A stretch of DNA of 64,000 nt, from positions 1,824,857 through 1,888,856 of the forward strand of contig NZ_CP168006.1 of the NCBI RefSeq assembly GCF_041521385.1, in the 5' to 3' direction. The notes under the pieces were generated by a model. The model was not told the origin of the DNA, did no database searches, and saw nothing but the letters and a program-made list of their open reading frames with translations. The stretch is from Alcaligenes faecalis. Its GTDB lineage: Bacteria > Pseudomonadota > Gammaproteobacteria > Burkholderiales > Burkholderiaceae_B. Each line of letters starts with the position of its first letter. Within the stretch, counting starts at the first letter, position 1. Positions 47,573 through 64,000 of the stretch are shown piece after piece. Both the position numbers and the translations under genes were made by a program.

Positions 47573-47605
47573 AAGCCCTGGCACCCAAGCAGGGCTTTTG
47601 TTTTA
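47573..47605 (+). terminator. Terminator after the methyltransferase gene
   Basis: AAGCCCTG and CAGGGCTT pair around a 9-nt loop and are followed by TTTGTTTT. It ends at the tail of the convergent receptor gene. Confidence 0.82.
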
Positions 47606-50011
47606 GAACTGGTACTTCATCGTCAGCATGATTTTCTGGGGCGCACCATAAAAGCCCTGGGAATCCTCCGTCAGATCCACATACTTCTTGTCGAACAAAT
47701 TGTTCACATTCAACTGCGCCGACAAGCTGGGCGAGAAACGGTAATGCGCCATCACGTTGGCCAGCAACACGGAGCCTTGCTCGCGTCGGGCGCTAAGGTT
47801 TGGCGCCACGGTTCTATCCACATAAACATGACTGCGCCATTGCACACCGCCACCTATCGTCAGCTTGCCTTCAGTGCCCGGCACAAGATAGGAGGTCTGC
47901 AGATTAGCCAGATTCTGCGGTTCAGAGGTTTTGAAGGGACCGCCTTCGGCATTACGCACCAGATTACGGGAAAAACCTGCGGACACCTGCCAGCCTGGCT
48001 GGATTTCACCTGAAGCCTGCAGCTCGAAGCCCTCGCTGGTCACGCCCTTGGCCCCGCGATAAGCAAAATCGCTAGAACCGGGTACCGTCCTGTCGCCGTC
48101 TTTTTCGGCCACATTGTCCTGCTCGATGCGAAACAGTGCCAGCGACGTGTTGAGCTTGCCGTCAAAGTGTTCGGACTTCAGGCCCAGCTCGTAGCTCTTG
48201 CCCTGCACCGGGTCCAGATAGCCACCACTGGCGTCACGATAGGTCTGTGGCTGGAAGATATCGGTGTAGCTGAGATAGGCCGTGACGTTCTCGGTGAAGT
48301 CGTACAGCAGACCAGCGTAAGGCGTGAATACGTGATGGTTCATGGTGTCATCGCCGGACTCGCGCTTCCAGTTGGTTTGTCGGCCACCCACGATCAGCTT
48401 CAGGGAATCGCTCAAGGACAAGCGCAGAGCACCATAGACCGCATTCTGGCGCGTTTCCTGCTCACCCAGCAGCTGGAAACTCCCCCATACCGGCTCGGGA
48501 TAGGAGCCGTCCCATTCAAAGACATTGCCTACTGGCGTATTGCCTTGTGGAGCATGATTGCCGTAGCGGTAGTTGGACTTGCTGCCCATTACCCCCACCA
48601 ATGCCTCGTGCTCCTGCCCAAAGGCCTCAAATGGCCCGCTCAGTTCCAACGACGCGCTGTTCTGATCGAACTCCTGATGCGAGTTATTCAGCAAGGAAGT
48701 CATGCCCAGGCCGGTGACTGGATCAGGGTGGCCCATCAAATACACCAGCTTGGAGTCGTACTCGCTTTCCAGACGGCTGACATTGGCTTTCAAGGACCAG
48801 CCATTGGAAAAGCGATGGTCGATGCCCGCGTAGAAGGTATTGCTGGTCGTATCCCAGCGCGTCCAATCTGCTCCAACACTGAACGAGCGACGCCAATCCA
48901 GATCCCCGCCCTTGTTATCCAAGGTAGGCAGACCGCCCCAGGTCACCCCTGTCGGACGCTTGGCCTGGTGCTCCACCCCCACCCGCACAGTGGTGTCTGC
49001 CGTCAGATCCGCTTCCGCGGTTGCCAACCAGGCACGATTACGCGTGTGATAACGGTCGATATACGAGTCGCGCTCCTCCATCATCCCTGCCACGCGAGCA
49101 CGCACTGTACCGTCCTTGTTCAAGGGCGTGGATAGATCAATCGTGCCTCGATGCTGGTCCCAGGACCCTATGCCAACAGAAGCGGTGCCGGTAAACACAT
49201 CACTGGTCGCGCGTTTGCGCACGATATTCACCGAGGCGCCTGGATTACCCGCCCCCGTCATCAAACCAGTCGCACCACGCACAATCTCGATGCGGTCGTA
49301 CAGAATGGGATCAAAGTTGGACGTCCCGAAAAAGTCGTTCTGCGTGGCAATGGACACCCCATCGTATTGGTAAGTGTCGACATAGAAACCACGCGAATGG
49401 ATGTCGGTACGGTCAATATCCGACATGGAAGTCGCAATCCCCGTCACGGTCTTGAAACTCTCACCCAGTGTGGTCAGATTCATGTCTTCCATCTGCTGGC
49501 GTGTGATCACACTGACGGACTGCGGGGTCTCGCGTGGTGACAGGCGCAAACCTGTTGCTGCCGTAGTCGCCTGCACGGCATAGGAGCCCGAGCCTTCAGT
49601 AGACAGATCACGCCCCACCACACGAACCGGAGCCAGCTGAGTCGCCTCGCCTTGAACCGGGCGGGTCAGGGACACGTTCTTGCCCTTACGCCGGAACTCC
49701 AGGCCTGTACCTGCCAGCAAGCGGCTTAAGGCTTGATCCGCCGTCAAACTGCCGGACACAGAGGGAGCCGTCATCCCCTTAACCGCCTCAGGCAGATAGA
49801 AAATCTGCAAGCCGGCCTGTGCTCCCAGTTTTTCCAGCGCGGCCTCCAAGGGTTGCGCGGCAATGCTGATCGCCACCGGCGTTTCCTGCGCCCAAGCGTG
49901 GGGTGCATGCAGACCAATAGCCAGAAAAAGAGAAAGAGCGAGGGCGTTAAGACCAATCGATGTCGTACCCCGACGCGCGGCGGCGGAGGGTATAGCTTGC
50001 GTGTCCAGCAT
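47603..50011 (-). CDS. TonB-dependent siderophore receptor with STN signalling domain
   Basis: Outer-membrane ferric-siderophore transporter and signal transducer, 802 residues. A signal peptide (about 1-42, ending in AWA) is followed by an STN domain (about 45-120, ISIAAQPLEAALEKLGAQAG), the plug (about 140-260, with SVSVITRQQMEDMN) and a 22-strand barrel ending in the terminal Phe of MKYQF. The STN domain and the upstream fecI-fecR genes show a FecA-like surface-signalling receptor. The ligand is unknown; FoxA/FpvA-like ferric siderophores fit. Start ATG 50011 places the signal peptide correctly, with GGAA upstream. The frame extends 18 residues further. Confidence 0.93.
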   Translation of the reverse strand: MLDTQAIPSAAARRGTTSIGLNALALSLFLAIGLHAPHAWAQETPVAISIAAQPLEAALEKLGAQAGLQIFYLPEAVKGMTAPSVSGSLTADQALSRLLAGTGLEFRRKGKNVSLTRPVQGEATQLAPVRVVGRDLSTEGSGSYAVQATTAATGLRLSPRETPQSVSVITRQQMEDMNLTTLGESFKTVTGIATSMSDIDRTDIHSRGFYVDTYQYDGVSIATQNDFFGTSNFDPILYDRIEIVRGATGLMTGAGNPGASVNIVRKRATSDVFTGTASVGIGSWDQHRGTIDLSTPLNKDGTVRARVAGMMEERDSYIDRYHTRNRAWLATAEADLTADTTVRVGVEHQAKRPTGVTWGGLPTLDNKGGDLDWRRSFSVGADWTRWDTTSNTFYAGIDHRFSNGWSLKANVSRLESEYDSKLVYLMGHPDPVTGLGMTSLLNNSHQEFDQNSASLELSGPFEAFGQEHEALVGVMGSKSNYRYGNHAPQGNTPVGNVFEWDGSYPEPVWGSFQLLGEQETRQNAVYGALRLSLSDSLKLIVGGRQTNWKRESGDDTMNHHVFTPYAGLLYDFTENVTAYLSYTDIFQPQTYRDASGGYLDPVQGKSYELGLKSEHFDGKLNTSLALFRIEQDNVAEKDGDRTVPGSSDFAYRGAKGVTSEGFELQASGEIQPGWQVSAGFSRNLVRNAEGGPFKTSEPQNLANLQTSYLVPGTEGKLTIGGGVQWRSHVYVDRTVAPNLSARREQGSVLLANVMAHYRFSPSLSAQLNVNNLFDKKYVDLTEDSQGFYGAPQKIMLTMKYQF

Positions 50012-50111: not shown

Positions 50112-50151
50112 GTAAGACGCCGTAGCGAAAAATTTTCCGGAATGATTCTCA
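50112..50151 (-). promoter_or_regulatory. Candidate receptor promoter with Fur-like site
   Basis: On the minus strand GGAAAA (50138-50133) and TCTTAC (50117-50112), 15 bases apart, resemble a FecI-type ECF promoter. TGAGAATCATTCCGG (50151-50137) matches one half of the Fur 7-1-7 site well and the other poorly, and it abuts the -35. Matches were made by eye. Confidence 0.45.
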
Positions 50152-50162
50152 CTGCTCTTTTT

Positions 50163-50177
50163 GATACAAAATGTATC
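50163..50177. promoter_or_regulatory. Perfect inverted repeat GATACA-N3-TGTATC
   Basis: A 6-3-6 palindrome lying upstream of the receptor promoter candidate, followed by ATGATGCATGAT. It could be an operator for an additional regulator. Confidence 0.4.
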
Positions 50178-50270
50178 ATCAATGATGCATGATTTGCTTG
50201 GCGACAGGACTCGACAGCACAACATGATTCGTCTTCGAATCGCTGTTCACTGTCCGCACTTCACGGTTCG

Positions 50271-50368
50271 TGGCTTGTGGCTTGTGGCTTGTGGCTTGTG
50301 GCTTGTGGCTTGTGGCTTGTGGCTTGTGGCTTGTGGCTTGTGGCTTGTGGCTTGTGGCTTGTGGCTTG
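50271..50368. repeat. Tandem heptamer array, 14 perfect copies of TGGCTTG
   Basis: Ninety-eight bases made only of TGGCTTG units (CAAGCCA on the gene strand), between the fecR stop 28 bases away and the receptor start 260 bases away. A unit of seven is prone to slippage, and 7 is not a multiple of 3. A minus-strand open frame (50179-50379) crosses it and would read a PQATSHK repeat, but it has no ribosome binding site. Confidence 0.97.
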
Positions 50369-50395
50369 CAGTCAAGCATAAAACGAACCGAAACT

Positions 50396-51382
50396 TTAAG
50401 GCGCCATCAGCAAAGCGCTACCATCCGCCTGTCGCGCCACCAGGACTGGCGCAATATCCGGCAGGATATCCAGCGCCGCTGCTGGCTCCTCAATACTCAA
50501 TGTGCCCGATATGCGCAGCTTGGCGATCTGTGAGTCTGCCACCCGCAAAGGGTGATCCAGATAGCGGCTCAGCTCTTCTGCCAACGTCGTCAAAGGCACA
50601 TCGCGGAACACGATGCGCCCCTCTTGCCAGGCCGTAATCGCTTCCACACGCTCCTGCTCCAAAGGCGTCACCTTGTTGTTTACCGCGCCGGATACTTGCC
50701 CGGCCAATAACATCGCCCGGTCCCTGCGCCACCACGGACCGGTAGAAAGCTGCACCGATCCCTCGCGCACCGCCACGGTGACACCTTCAGCCTCTCGACG
50801 CACATTGAACTGCGTGCCGGTAACCAGCACCTGCGCTTGACCCGCGTCTACGGAGAAGGGTCGATTCTTGTCGGACTGTACGGCAAGCAGGGCCTCGCCC
50901 CGCAGCAACTCCACGCTACGGCGCGACGCGTAAAACGCGATGTTCACTTCCGTGTCCGTATTCAAATCCAGACGCGAACCATCCGGCAATTCAAACTGCT
51001 TGCGCTCGCCGCGTGCCGTCAACAGGCGCTGGGTAAACACTGGTGTCTCGGCCCACATCGAACGACTGAACCAGGCCCCGGCAGCCACCGCGGCAAACGT
51101 CGCCCCTGTACCCATCACCCAGCGCCGCCGCGCAAAGTTGGGCACCTCTTGCGCCGGACGATTCATGATCTCCCGCATCTCGTCCATGGGCAGATGATCC
51201 GCCACCTGCCAGACCTGCTGCAAGGAACGGTACTCCCGCTCATTAGCCGGATCCTGCGCCAACCACGCATCCCGCTCACGCTGTTCCTGCGGCGTCAGCT
51301 CACCGAGCTGCTCTCTGGAAAACCAGTCCAGCGCTTGCTCTTGGGGCAGATGAGAGGGGGTGGGCTTGTCGTTTTTAGGCAT
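50396..51382 (-). CDS. fecR: FecR-like anti-sigma / sigma regulator
   Basis: Inner-membrane signal relay of 328 residues between the receptor and the ECF sigma factor. The N-terminal DUF4880-type cytoplasmic part (about 12-60) contains the conserved ALDWFSREQLGELTPQE pattern; a membrane helix lies near 84-100; the periplasmic FecR domain shows ARGERKQFELPDGSRLDLNT. A C-terminal STN-like part binds the receptor. ATG 51382 fits the family start; GTG 51427 would add 15 residues. fecI lies upstream. Confidence 0.92.
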   Translation of the reverse strand: MPKNDKPTPSHLPQEQALDWFSREQLGELTPQEQRERDAWLAQDPANEREYRSLQQVWQVADHLPMDEMREIMNRPAQEVPNFARRRWVMGTGATFAAVAAGAWFSRSMWAETPVFTQRLLTARGERKQFELPDGSRLDLNTDTEVNIAFYASRRSVELLRGEALLAVQSDKNRPFSVDAGQAQVLVTGTQFNVRREAEGVTVAVREGSVQLSTGPWWRRDRAMLLAGQVSGAVNNKVTPLEQERVEAITAWQEGRIVFRDVPLTTLAEELSRYLDHPLRVADSQIAKLRISGTLSIEEPAAALDILPDIAPVLVARQADGSALLMAP

Positions 51383-51460
51383 GGCTCGCGTCGCCAGGGA
51401 CACAGGGCAAAAAACCGTGCCCTTCACTGATAAGACGTTTATGCATAAGGAAATCCGGAA

Positions 51461-51967
51461 TCAATGAGGGGCATAGTTTTGTAACTTTTTCTGAAGATGC
51501 CGTAATGCCCGCTTCATGTATTTTTCCACCGAGCTGGGCGTCAGATCCAGCTTCTCTGCAATTTCCTTTTGCGTATAGCCCTCTATTTTGTTCCACAAAA
51601 ACACTTGCTGGCACTTCAAGGGCAGCTCCTGCAAAGCCTCCCGCAACGCCTGGCTAAGCTGCTCCATGCGCAGATCACTTTCCGGGCCAGGGTCTACCGG
51701 ATGCTCCTCCTCGCGCAAATCGTGCAAGGGCACCACCTCATGGCGCGACTGGCGGCGGATTTCACTGATCAATTGGTTTTGCGCACTGCGATACAGATAG
51801 GCTTTTTGATTCAGTGCCGCAGCATGTTCACCGCGCAACAAGCCTTCAATGGAGTCCTGCGCGGCATCTTCCGCGTCCTGCGGCAAAGAACTGCGCTTCG
51901 CCCACGAGCCGATCAGCCCGCTGTAATGAGCGAGCCAGCCTTTCTTGGGCGAAGGTCGGCGGGACAT
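51461..51967 (-). CDS. fecI: FecI-like ECF sigma factor
   Basis: Sigma-70 family ECF factor of 168 residues that should direct transcription of the receptor gene. Region 2 covers about 20-80 (DAEDAAQDSIEGLLRG, KAYLYRSAQNQLISEIRR) and region 4 about 105-165 (LPLKCQQVFLWNKIEGYTQKEIAEKL). First gene of the fecI-fecR-receptor unit, with a Fur-like box upstream. It is divergent from sodC. Confidence 0.94.
   Translation of the reverse strand: MSRRPSPKKGWLAHYSGLIGSWAKRSSLPQDAEDAAQDSIEGLLRGEHAAALNQKAYLYRSAQNQLISEIRRQSRHEVVPLHDLREEEHPVDPGPESDLRMEQLSQALREALQELPLKCQQVFLWNKIEGYTQKEIAEKLDLTPSSVEKYMKRALRHLQKKLQNYAPH

Positions 51968-63913: not shown

Positions 63914-64000
<87 letters not shown>

What the first reader, a model, noticed from the sequence alone, without database searches (positions are those of the whole stretch)
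50271..50368. Fourteen perfect heptamers between fecR and its receptor gene: possible phase-variable iron uptake
Seen: 14 exact TGGCTTG units in the fecR-receptor spacer, upstream of the candidate ECF promoter. Known: tandem repeats of this size change copy number by slipped-strand pairing, and surface receptors are common phase-variable targets. Inferred: copy number could alter mRNA structure or promoter spacing and so receptor output. The purity of the array implies recent or continuing expansion.
Basis: partly seen in the sequence, partly recalled or inferred. Interest (0 to 1): 0.72.

Follow-up and report, generated by a model that had tools for sequence, protein, structure and literature searches.

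The report
Variable heptamer array behind fecR
A perfect run of fourteen 7-base repeats lies just past the end of an iron-signalling gene in an Alcaligenes genome; sister species carry other 7-base units in other numbers at the same spot, which looks like an unstable, mostly tolerated spacer repeat rather than a switch for the iron receptor.

Summary
In detail: 14 exact TGGCTTG units at 50271-50368. The array starts 27 nt after the fecR stop and ends 259 nt before the ATG of a FauA/FpvA-like receptor, about 132 nt upstream of the candidate ECF -35 box.

Six of 10 genus genomes hold the orthologous fecR. Four carry the array with exactly the same 27-nt and 259-nt flanks; only whole heptads differ: 14 (CAAGCCA), 3, 2, and 19 (12 CGAGCAA + 7 CAAGCAA). 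Two lack the array but keep the promoter boxes and an intact receptor frame. The flank is single-copy.

Similar arrays lie at other genus loci beside unrelated genes, over-represented between convergent genes and rare between divergent ones. This resembles the intergenic heptamers of Xanthomonas.

Best explanation: a slippage-prone heptamer minisatellite in the fecR trailer, hypervariable between species and largely tolerated. A receptor switch is possible but unsupported. Caution: this genome's assembly looks gap-filled (a perfect 24.5-kb octamer array beside an N, long N runs), so the count and purity of 14 are not secure.

The parts
50271..50368 (-). array of 14 perfect heptamers (TGGCTTG on +, CAAGCCA on the transcript strand)
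50264..50390 (-). span between and including the 8-bp inverted repeat arms CGGTTCGT (50264-50271) and ACGAACCG (50383-50390) that enclose the array
   Evidence: perfect pairing in G000 and G005, one mismatch in G004 and G008
50396..51427 (-). fecR (anti-sigma/signal transducer); array begins 27 nt after its stop
51461..51967 (-). fecI-like ECF sigma factor gene
47603..50011 (-). TonB-dependent siderophore receptor with STN domain, FauA/FpvA-like
50112..50138 (-). candidate ECF promoter: GGAAAAT (50132-50138), CGTCTTAC (50112-50119); motif class recalled
   Evidence: both boxes present in 6 of 6 orthologous spacers
50139..50150 (-). Fur-like GAGAATCATTCC (consensus recalled)
   Evidence: exact in 5 of 6 orthologous spacers, one substitution in G005
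50162..50178 (.). palindrome TGATACAAAATGTATCA beside the promoter block
   Evidence: its core is exact in 4 of 6 spacers

Best explanation
The array is a heptanucleotide minisatellite in the 3' trailer of fecR that gains and loses whole 7-base units, most likely by replication slippage. Probably two or three CAAGCNR-like heptads were already at this site in the common ancestor of four Alcaligenes species. In two lineages (this genome and G005) different founder units were amplified separately, so the unit differs by species while position and phase do not. The site tolerates this because it lies between the fecR stop and the upstream edge of the receptor's own promoter block, about 132 nt from the -35 box. 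Shown: position, phase, whole-unit length differences, different units, absence in two species with promoter boxes and receptor frame intact, similar arrays elsewhere in the genus. Inferred: slippage as mechanism, the ancestral state, near-neutrality, and that the receptor is transcribed from the promoter inside the fixed 259-nt block.
For: Fixed 27-nt and 259-nt flanks with 14/3/2/19 heptads in 4 of 4 array-bearing species; units CAAGCCA, CAAGCAG/CAAGCAA, CAAGCAA/TAAGCCA, CGAGCAA/CAAGCAA. No array in 2 of 6 orthologous spacers (179 and 228 nt long), with GGAAAAT and CGTCTTAC boxes in 6 of 6 and receptor frames of 801-802 aa in 6 of 6. Array flank single-copy, one match in each of 4 of 10 genomes. 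In a 2.18-Mb sample of 8 genus genomes, 28 pure arrays; of the 18 that could be classed, 9 convergent, 8 tandem, 1 divergent, against 21/53/26% of intergenic bases (convergent excess p 0.006, divergent deficit p 0.03). Similar turnover at two other sites: octamer CTCGTTTG behind a ruvA-like gene with 9.5 copies in G002, 7.4 in G001, 4.8 in G008, none in G004, G005, G007 and G009, two other octamers in G006; CAA site with 14.3 copies in G008, 5.7 in G002, a hexamer instead in G005 (6.5) and G004 (4.8), none in G006 and G007. A polysaccharide-deacetylase locus has TAAGCCG or TGAGCCG arrays of 5.3-10 units in 4 of the 4 genomes that hold the gene. MutS1 is present in 10 of 10.
Against: No within-species or read-level data, so ongoing instability is inferred from species differences. 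The 259-nt block between array and ATG has the same length in all four species, which could also mean constraint on something upstream of the promoter. The enclosing inverted repeat is perfect in two species with a paired difference, a hint of structure, though mismatched in the other two. The 91 nt beside the array fold better than 189 of 200 shuffles (z -1.80). The array sits upstream of a surface receptor, a usual place for contingency repeats. The array statistics rest on a home-made gene caller and 18 arrays, the focal one included.
Confidence: 0.72

Rival explanations
1. Phase-variable receptor: copy number at the array changes receptor transcription, in the manner of the hmw1A promoter repeats of Haemophilus influenzae.
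For: Heptamer array of similar copy number upstream of a surface receptor gene; copy number differs widely between species.
Against: Array about 132 nt upstream of the candidate -35 box, whose distance to the ATG is the same in the four array-bearing species; array absent in 2 of 6 orthologous spacers and only 2-3 units in 2 more; similar arrays next to genes of mixed function. hmw1A repeats overlap promoter boxes and enter the mRNA (PMC8262952, passages).
Confidence: 0.12
2. Length-tunable readthrough: the array, transcribed behind fecR, changes how much fecIR transcription runs on into the receptor gene, for instance as a Rho-loading (rut-like) stretch.
For: On the transcript the array is 43% C and 14% G and unstructured, as Rho prefers (recalled); it starts 27 nt after the fecR stop; an 8-bp inverted repeat encloses it.
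Against: The sister arrays have lower C/G ratios (1.2, 2.0 and 1.2 against 3.0) and 0, 1 and 0 YC steps against 14; array missing in two species. No transcript data.
Confidence: 0.08
3. Assembly artefact: the true array in this genome is shorter or less pure and was extended by gap filling.
For: Same assembly has a perfect 24.5-kb octamer array (3,064 copies) ending at an N where relatives have 0-9.5 copies, a (CAA)29 and a (GCAACA)16.5 that end at N, long N runs, and two mutS1 matches of equal score 50 kb apart.
Against: No N touches the fecR array and its flanks match relatives in length and sequence; G005, with no N in the stretches read, has 19 units at the site.
Confidence: 0.08

Closest known systems
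Intergenic heptamer repeats (GGGAATC)n of Xanthomonas and (GGGGA[C/T]T)n of Nostoc (PMC4692102; sections 13 and 16 and passages read)
   Same: Heptamer period; tandem; mostly intergenic; reported average 28 nt from the 5' neighbouring ORF (27 nt here); mostly the same gene pairs but different length and sequence in sister species; divergent spacers avoided; neighbours of mixed function; authors consider phase variation unlikely.
   Different: There one G-rich, quadruplex-forming unit occurs at about 180 places per genome; here the unit is not G-rich, differs between loci and species, and the 3-unit TGGCTTG word occurs at one place in the genome.
Haemophilus influenzae hmw1A/hmw2A (ATCTTTC)n promoter repeats (PMC8262952; passages read)
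   Same: Heptamer array of similar copy number upstream of a surface protein gene.
   Different: Repeats there lie between and overlap two promoters and enter the mRNA from P2; here the array is outside the promoter block and is missing in two relatives.
FecI-FecR-receptor cell-surface signalling operons (recalled); receptor nearest FauA and FpvA by sequence
   Same: ECF sigma, FecR and STN-bearing receptor in that order on one strand.
   Different: Carries a variable tandem array in the regulator-receptor spacer.

Membership tests
Intergenic heptanucleotide tandem repeat (minisatellite/SSR) | head-to-tail 7-bp units, non-coding | tested here: met
   between called genes; the + strand ORF 50161-50637 was not called as a gene
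Intergenic heptanucleotide tandem repeat (minisatellite/SSR) | copy number differs between related genomes in whole units | tested here: met
   14, 3, 2, 19 units in four species
Phase-variable contingency locus | repeat lies in the promoter, the 5' UTR or the reading frame of the controlled gene | tested here: inconclusive
   about 132 nt upstream of the candidate -35 box, outside the frame; transcription start not measured
Phase-variable contingency locus | copy number varies within a strain or among isolates | not testable with these tools
   one genome per species held; no reads
Phase-variable contingency locus | expression changes with copy number | not testable with these tools
   needs a bench test
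Phase-variable contingency locus | array kept in related species with the same gene (supporting, not strictly defining) | tested here: not met
   absent in 2 of 6 orthologous spacers, 2-3 units in 2 more
Mobile or dispersed repeat element (REP, MITE) | several copies per genome | tested here: not met
   array flank has one match in each of 4 of 10 genomes
FecI-FecR-receptor signalling operon | ECF sigma, FecR and receptor with STN domain | tested here: met
   Pfam Sigma70_r2/r4, FecR, STN+Plug+barrel

The most novel reading that the evidence does not exclude
The heptads form a length-quantised regulatory spacer: copy number sets readthrough from the sigma/anti-sigma genes into the receptor (for example by loading Rho on an unstructured C-rich array enclosed by an inverted repeat). 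Species then replace the unit while keeping position and phase, giving a tunable link between signalling and uptake.
Probability: 0.07. Interest if true: 0.7.

Novelty: new member of a known kind. Interest (0 to 1): 0.36.

Why it matters
It is a clean natural series (0, 2, 3, 14 and 19 units, with otherwise equal spacers in the four array-bearing species) for asking how long bacterial tandem arrays are born, swap their unit and die at one place. It also shows why a repeat near a surface gene is not by itself a contingency locus. Six literature searches listed no paper that I recognised as describing it or period-7/8 arrays in Alcaligenes; the one genus survey opened used motifs of 1-6 bp (PMC5827749, passages). 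The site could serve for typing isolates.

Tried and rejected
Dispersed or mobile element: rejected, flank single-copy. Coding repeat: rejected, the antisense frame 50161-50637 was not called by the codon model and the unit differs between species. A family-wide conserved array: rejected, the exact 3-unit word is in 2 of 268 family genomes; the second, G041, has about 13 units 39 nt past the stop of a 278-aa ApaH-like frame (label recalled, no family search run), an unrelated locus. Structured RNA array: rejected, the array folds no better than shuffles (z -0.10) and array plus near flanks worse than average (z 1.37); the 91 nt of flank on the receptor side fold somewhat better than shuffles (z -1.80), the G004 stretch does not (z 0.64). 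Decayed heptads beside the array: lag-7 matching in the first 70 nt of the flank is weak (p 0.058, 0.157, 0.037, 0.042 in four related, non-independent sequences, and other lags such as 5 and 10 are also high), so I make no claim. Loss of MutS: rejected, MutS1 in 10 of 10. Sigma-70 promoter scan: 0 found; terminator-like sites 3 against 2.3 expected.

Full report
Observation. The window holds 14 exact TGGCTTG units at 50271-50368. The two-unit word does not occur in 100 shuffles and 20 Markov copies of the window give no period-7 run of 18 nt or more. The genes next to it are on the minus strand: FecI-like sigma (51461-51967), FecR (50396-51427), then a TonB-dependent receptor with an STN domain (47603-50011). 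The receptor's best sequence matches among solved structures are the alcaligin receptor FauA (3efm) and the pyoverdine receptor FpvA. On the transcript the unit is CAAGCCA.

Host. FecR relatives found in named genomes are Alcaligenes faecalis AU14 (92%), Alcaligenes sp. SORT26 (84% for the orthologue, 44% for a second gene) and Paenalcaligenes suwonensis (42%), so the window is most likely from Alcaligenes. Of 10 genus genomes, 6 carry the orthologous fecR at 76-100% identity; the other 4 have only relatives of 41% or less.

The same site in relatives. I read the spacer of all 6 orthologues. The distance from fecR stop to array is 27 nt and from array to receptor ATG 259 nt in all 4 array-bearing species. 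Between these lie 14 units here, 3 in G004 (CAAGCAG, CAAGCAG, CAAGCAA), 2 in G008 (CAAGCAA, TAAGCCA) and 19 in G005 (12 CGAGCAA then 7 CAAGCAA). G007 and G006 have spacers of 179 and 228 nt without the array. A GGAAAAT / CGTCTTAC pair that I read as an ECF promoter (motifs recalled) is present in 6 of 6; a Fur-like GAGAATCATTCC is exact in 5 of 6. The receptor frames are intact at 801-802 aa with 86-99% identity to this one. Variation in length among the four is thus confined to whole heptads at one point, as expected for slippage, and the promoter block does not depend on the array.

Not a dispersed element. The 110 nt beside the array have one match in each of 4 of 10 genomes and none in the other 6. 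The exact 3-unit word is in 2 of 268 family genomes: this one and G041, where about 13 units lie 39 nt past the stop of an ApaH-like frame (label recalled).

A genus habit. A degenerate YRAGCVR three-unit pattern hits 7 of 10 genus genomes; the reversed-pattern control hits 1 of 10 (9 matches in G005, not followed up; perhaps another heptamer array). The arrays lie at several loci: behind a polysaccharide deacetylase gene in G005-G008 (5.3 to 10 units of TAAGCCG or TGAGCCG), near an OmpA-type lipoprotein gene in G002 and G004, and between LysR and Rieske genes in G008. The deacetylase gene itself occurs in only 4 of 10 genomes, all 4 with an array. In 2.18 Mb sampled from 8 genomes, 28 pure arrays of period 3-15 were found, 6 of the 26 not touching an N having period 7. 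Eighteen could be classed: 9 convergent, 8 tandem (this one included), 1 divergent, while 21, 53 and 26% of intergenic bases are of these kinds (convergent p 0.006, divergent p 0.03). Left out of that test: 8 arrays of unclear setting and 2 inside called frames, the only two arrays that touch an N being among these ten. Two more sites show similar turnover. Behind a ruvA-like gene (label recalled) the octamer CTCGTTTG has 9.5 copies in G002, 7.4 in G001 and 4.8 in G008; the stretches of G004, G005, G007 and G009 have no octamer array, and G006 has two other octamers (7.9 and 6.5 copies). At the CAA site at the window's end G008 has 14.3 copies, G002 5.7, G005 and G004 a CTACAA-type hexamer (6.5 and 4.8 copies), and G006 and G007 none.

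Assembly caution. This genome's assembly has a perfect 24,514-bp octamer array (3,064 copies) ending at an N, a (CAA)29 ending at an N, a (GCAACA)16.5 ending at a long N run, other long N runs, and two mutS1 matches of equal score 50 kb apart. I read these as gap-filling and duplication, though some N may be operator masking. The fecR array touches no N and its flanks agree with relatives, and G005 shows that long arrays at this site exist; but the count of 14 and its purity should be checked in reads. The higher array density of G000 (17 of the 28 arrays in 776 kb of the 2.18 Mb) may be inflated for the same reason.

Mechanism. The most likely account is an old heptad site in the fecR trailer that expands and contracts by slippage and from time to time re-expands from a changed unit, tolerated because it lies outside the receptor's promoter. 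MutS1 is present in 10 of 10; loops of seven bases are poorly seen by MutS (recalled), so no repair defect is needed. The RNA of the array is unstructured. An 8-bp inverted repeat encloses it, perfect in G000 and G005 with a paired difference and mismatched at one pair in G004 and G008, too little to claim a conserved structure. A Rho-loading reading fits this genome's composition (43% C, 14% G) better than that of its sisters.

Known kinds. The Xanthomonas/Nostoc heptamers (PMC4692102; sections 13 and 16 and passages read) agree in period, position (average 28 nt from the 5' neighbouring ORF), avoidance of divergent spacers, and species differences at the same gene pairs; their authors identified no regulatory role. 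hmw1A (PMC8262952, passages) is the functional analogue that a phase-variation claim would need, but its repeats overlap promoter boxes. A survey of Alcaligenes repeats covered units of 1-6 bp (PMC5827749, passages). Of the papers listed by the six searches I opened only these three.

Verdict. It is a new member of a known kind, of moderate interest because of the natural copy-number series and the change of unit at a fixed place.

Noticed in passing
G000:C1:978364-1002877 (L168, L169, L106, L092): A perfect 24.5-kb array of 3,064 CTCGTTTG octamers between a ruvA-like gene and a dehydratase-like gene (labels recalled), ending at an N; in the relatives read the site has 0-9.5 copies, so it is most likely a gap-fill product.
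   Followed up: yes
window 63914-64000 (L086:771-857): (CAA)29 ending at an N just past the window, between an HTH gene and a second TonB-dependent receptor gene; 14.3 copies in G008, 5.7 in G002, a hexamer array instead in G005 and G004, none in G006 and G007.
   Followed up: partly
G000:C1:1234518-1237106 and 1284246-1286834: Two mutS1 matches with equal score and frame length, 50 kb apart, in this genome only of 10; perhaps a duplicated stretch in the assembly.
   Followed up: no
L102:6902-18183, L103, L118:3233-20000: Long N runs in the window's genome, one starting in a tandem repeat and one in a run of A.
   Followed up: no
L183:18807-19058 (G004): (TGCT)63, a 252-bp tetranucleotide array in a single-contig sister genome.
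   Followed up: no
L193 (G006, behind the ruvA-like gene): Two different octamer arrays, TTGCTTCG (7.9 copies) and CTCAATAG (6.5 copies), close together at the site where some relatives have CTCGTTTG.
   Followed up: no
L080:758-850 (G041, another genus): About 13 units of the same CAAGCCA heptamer 39 nt past the stop of an ApaH-like frame (label recalled), apparently independent.
   Followed up: partly
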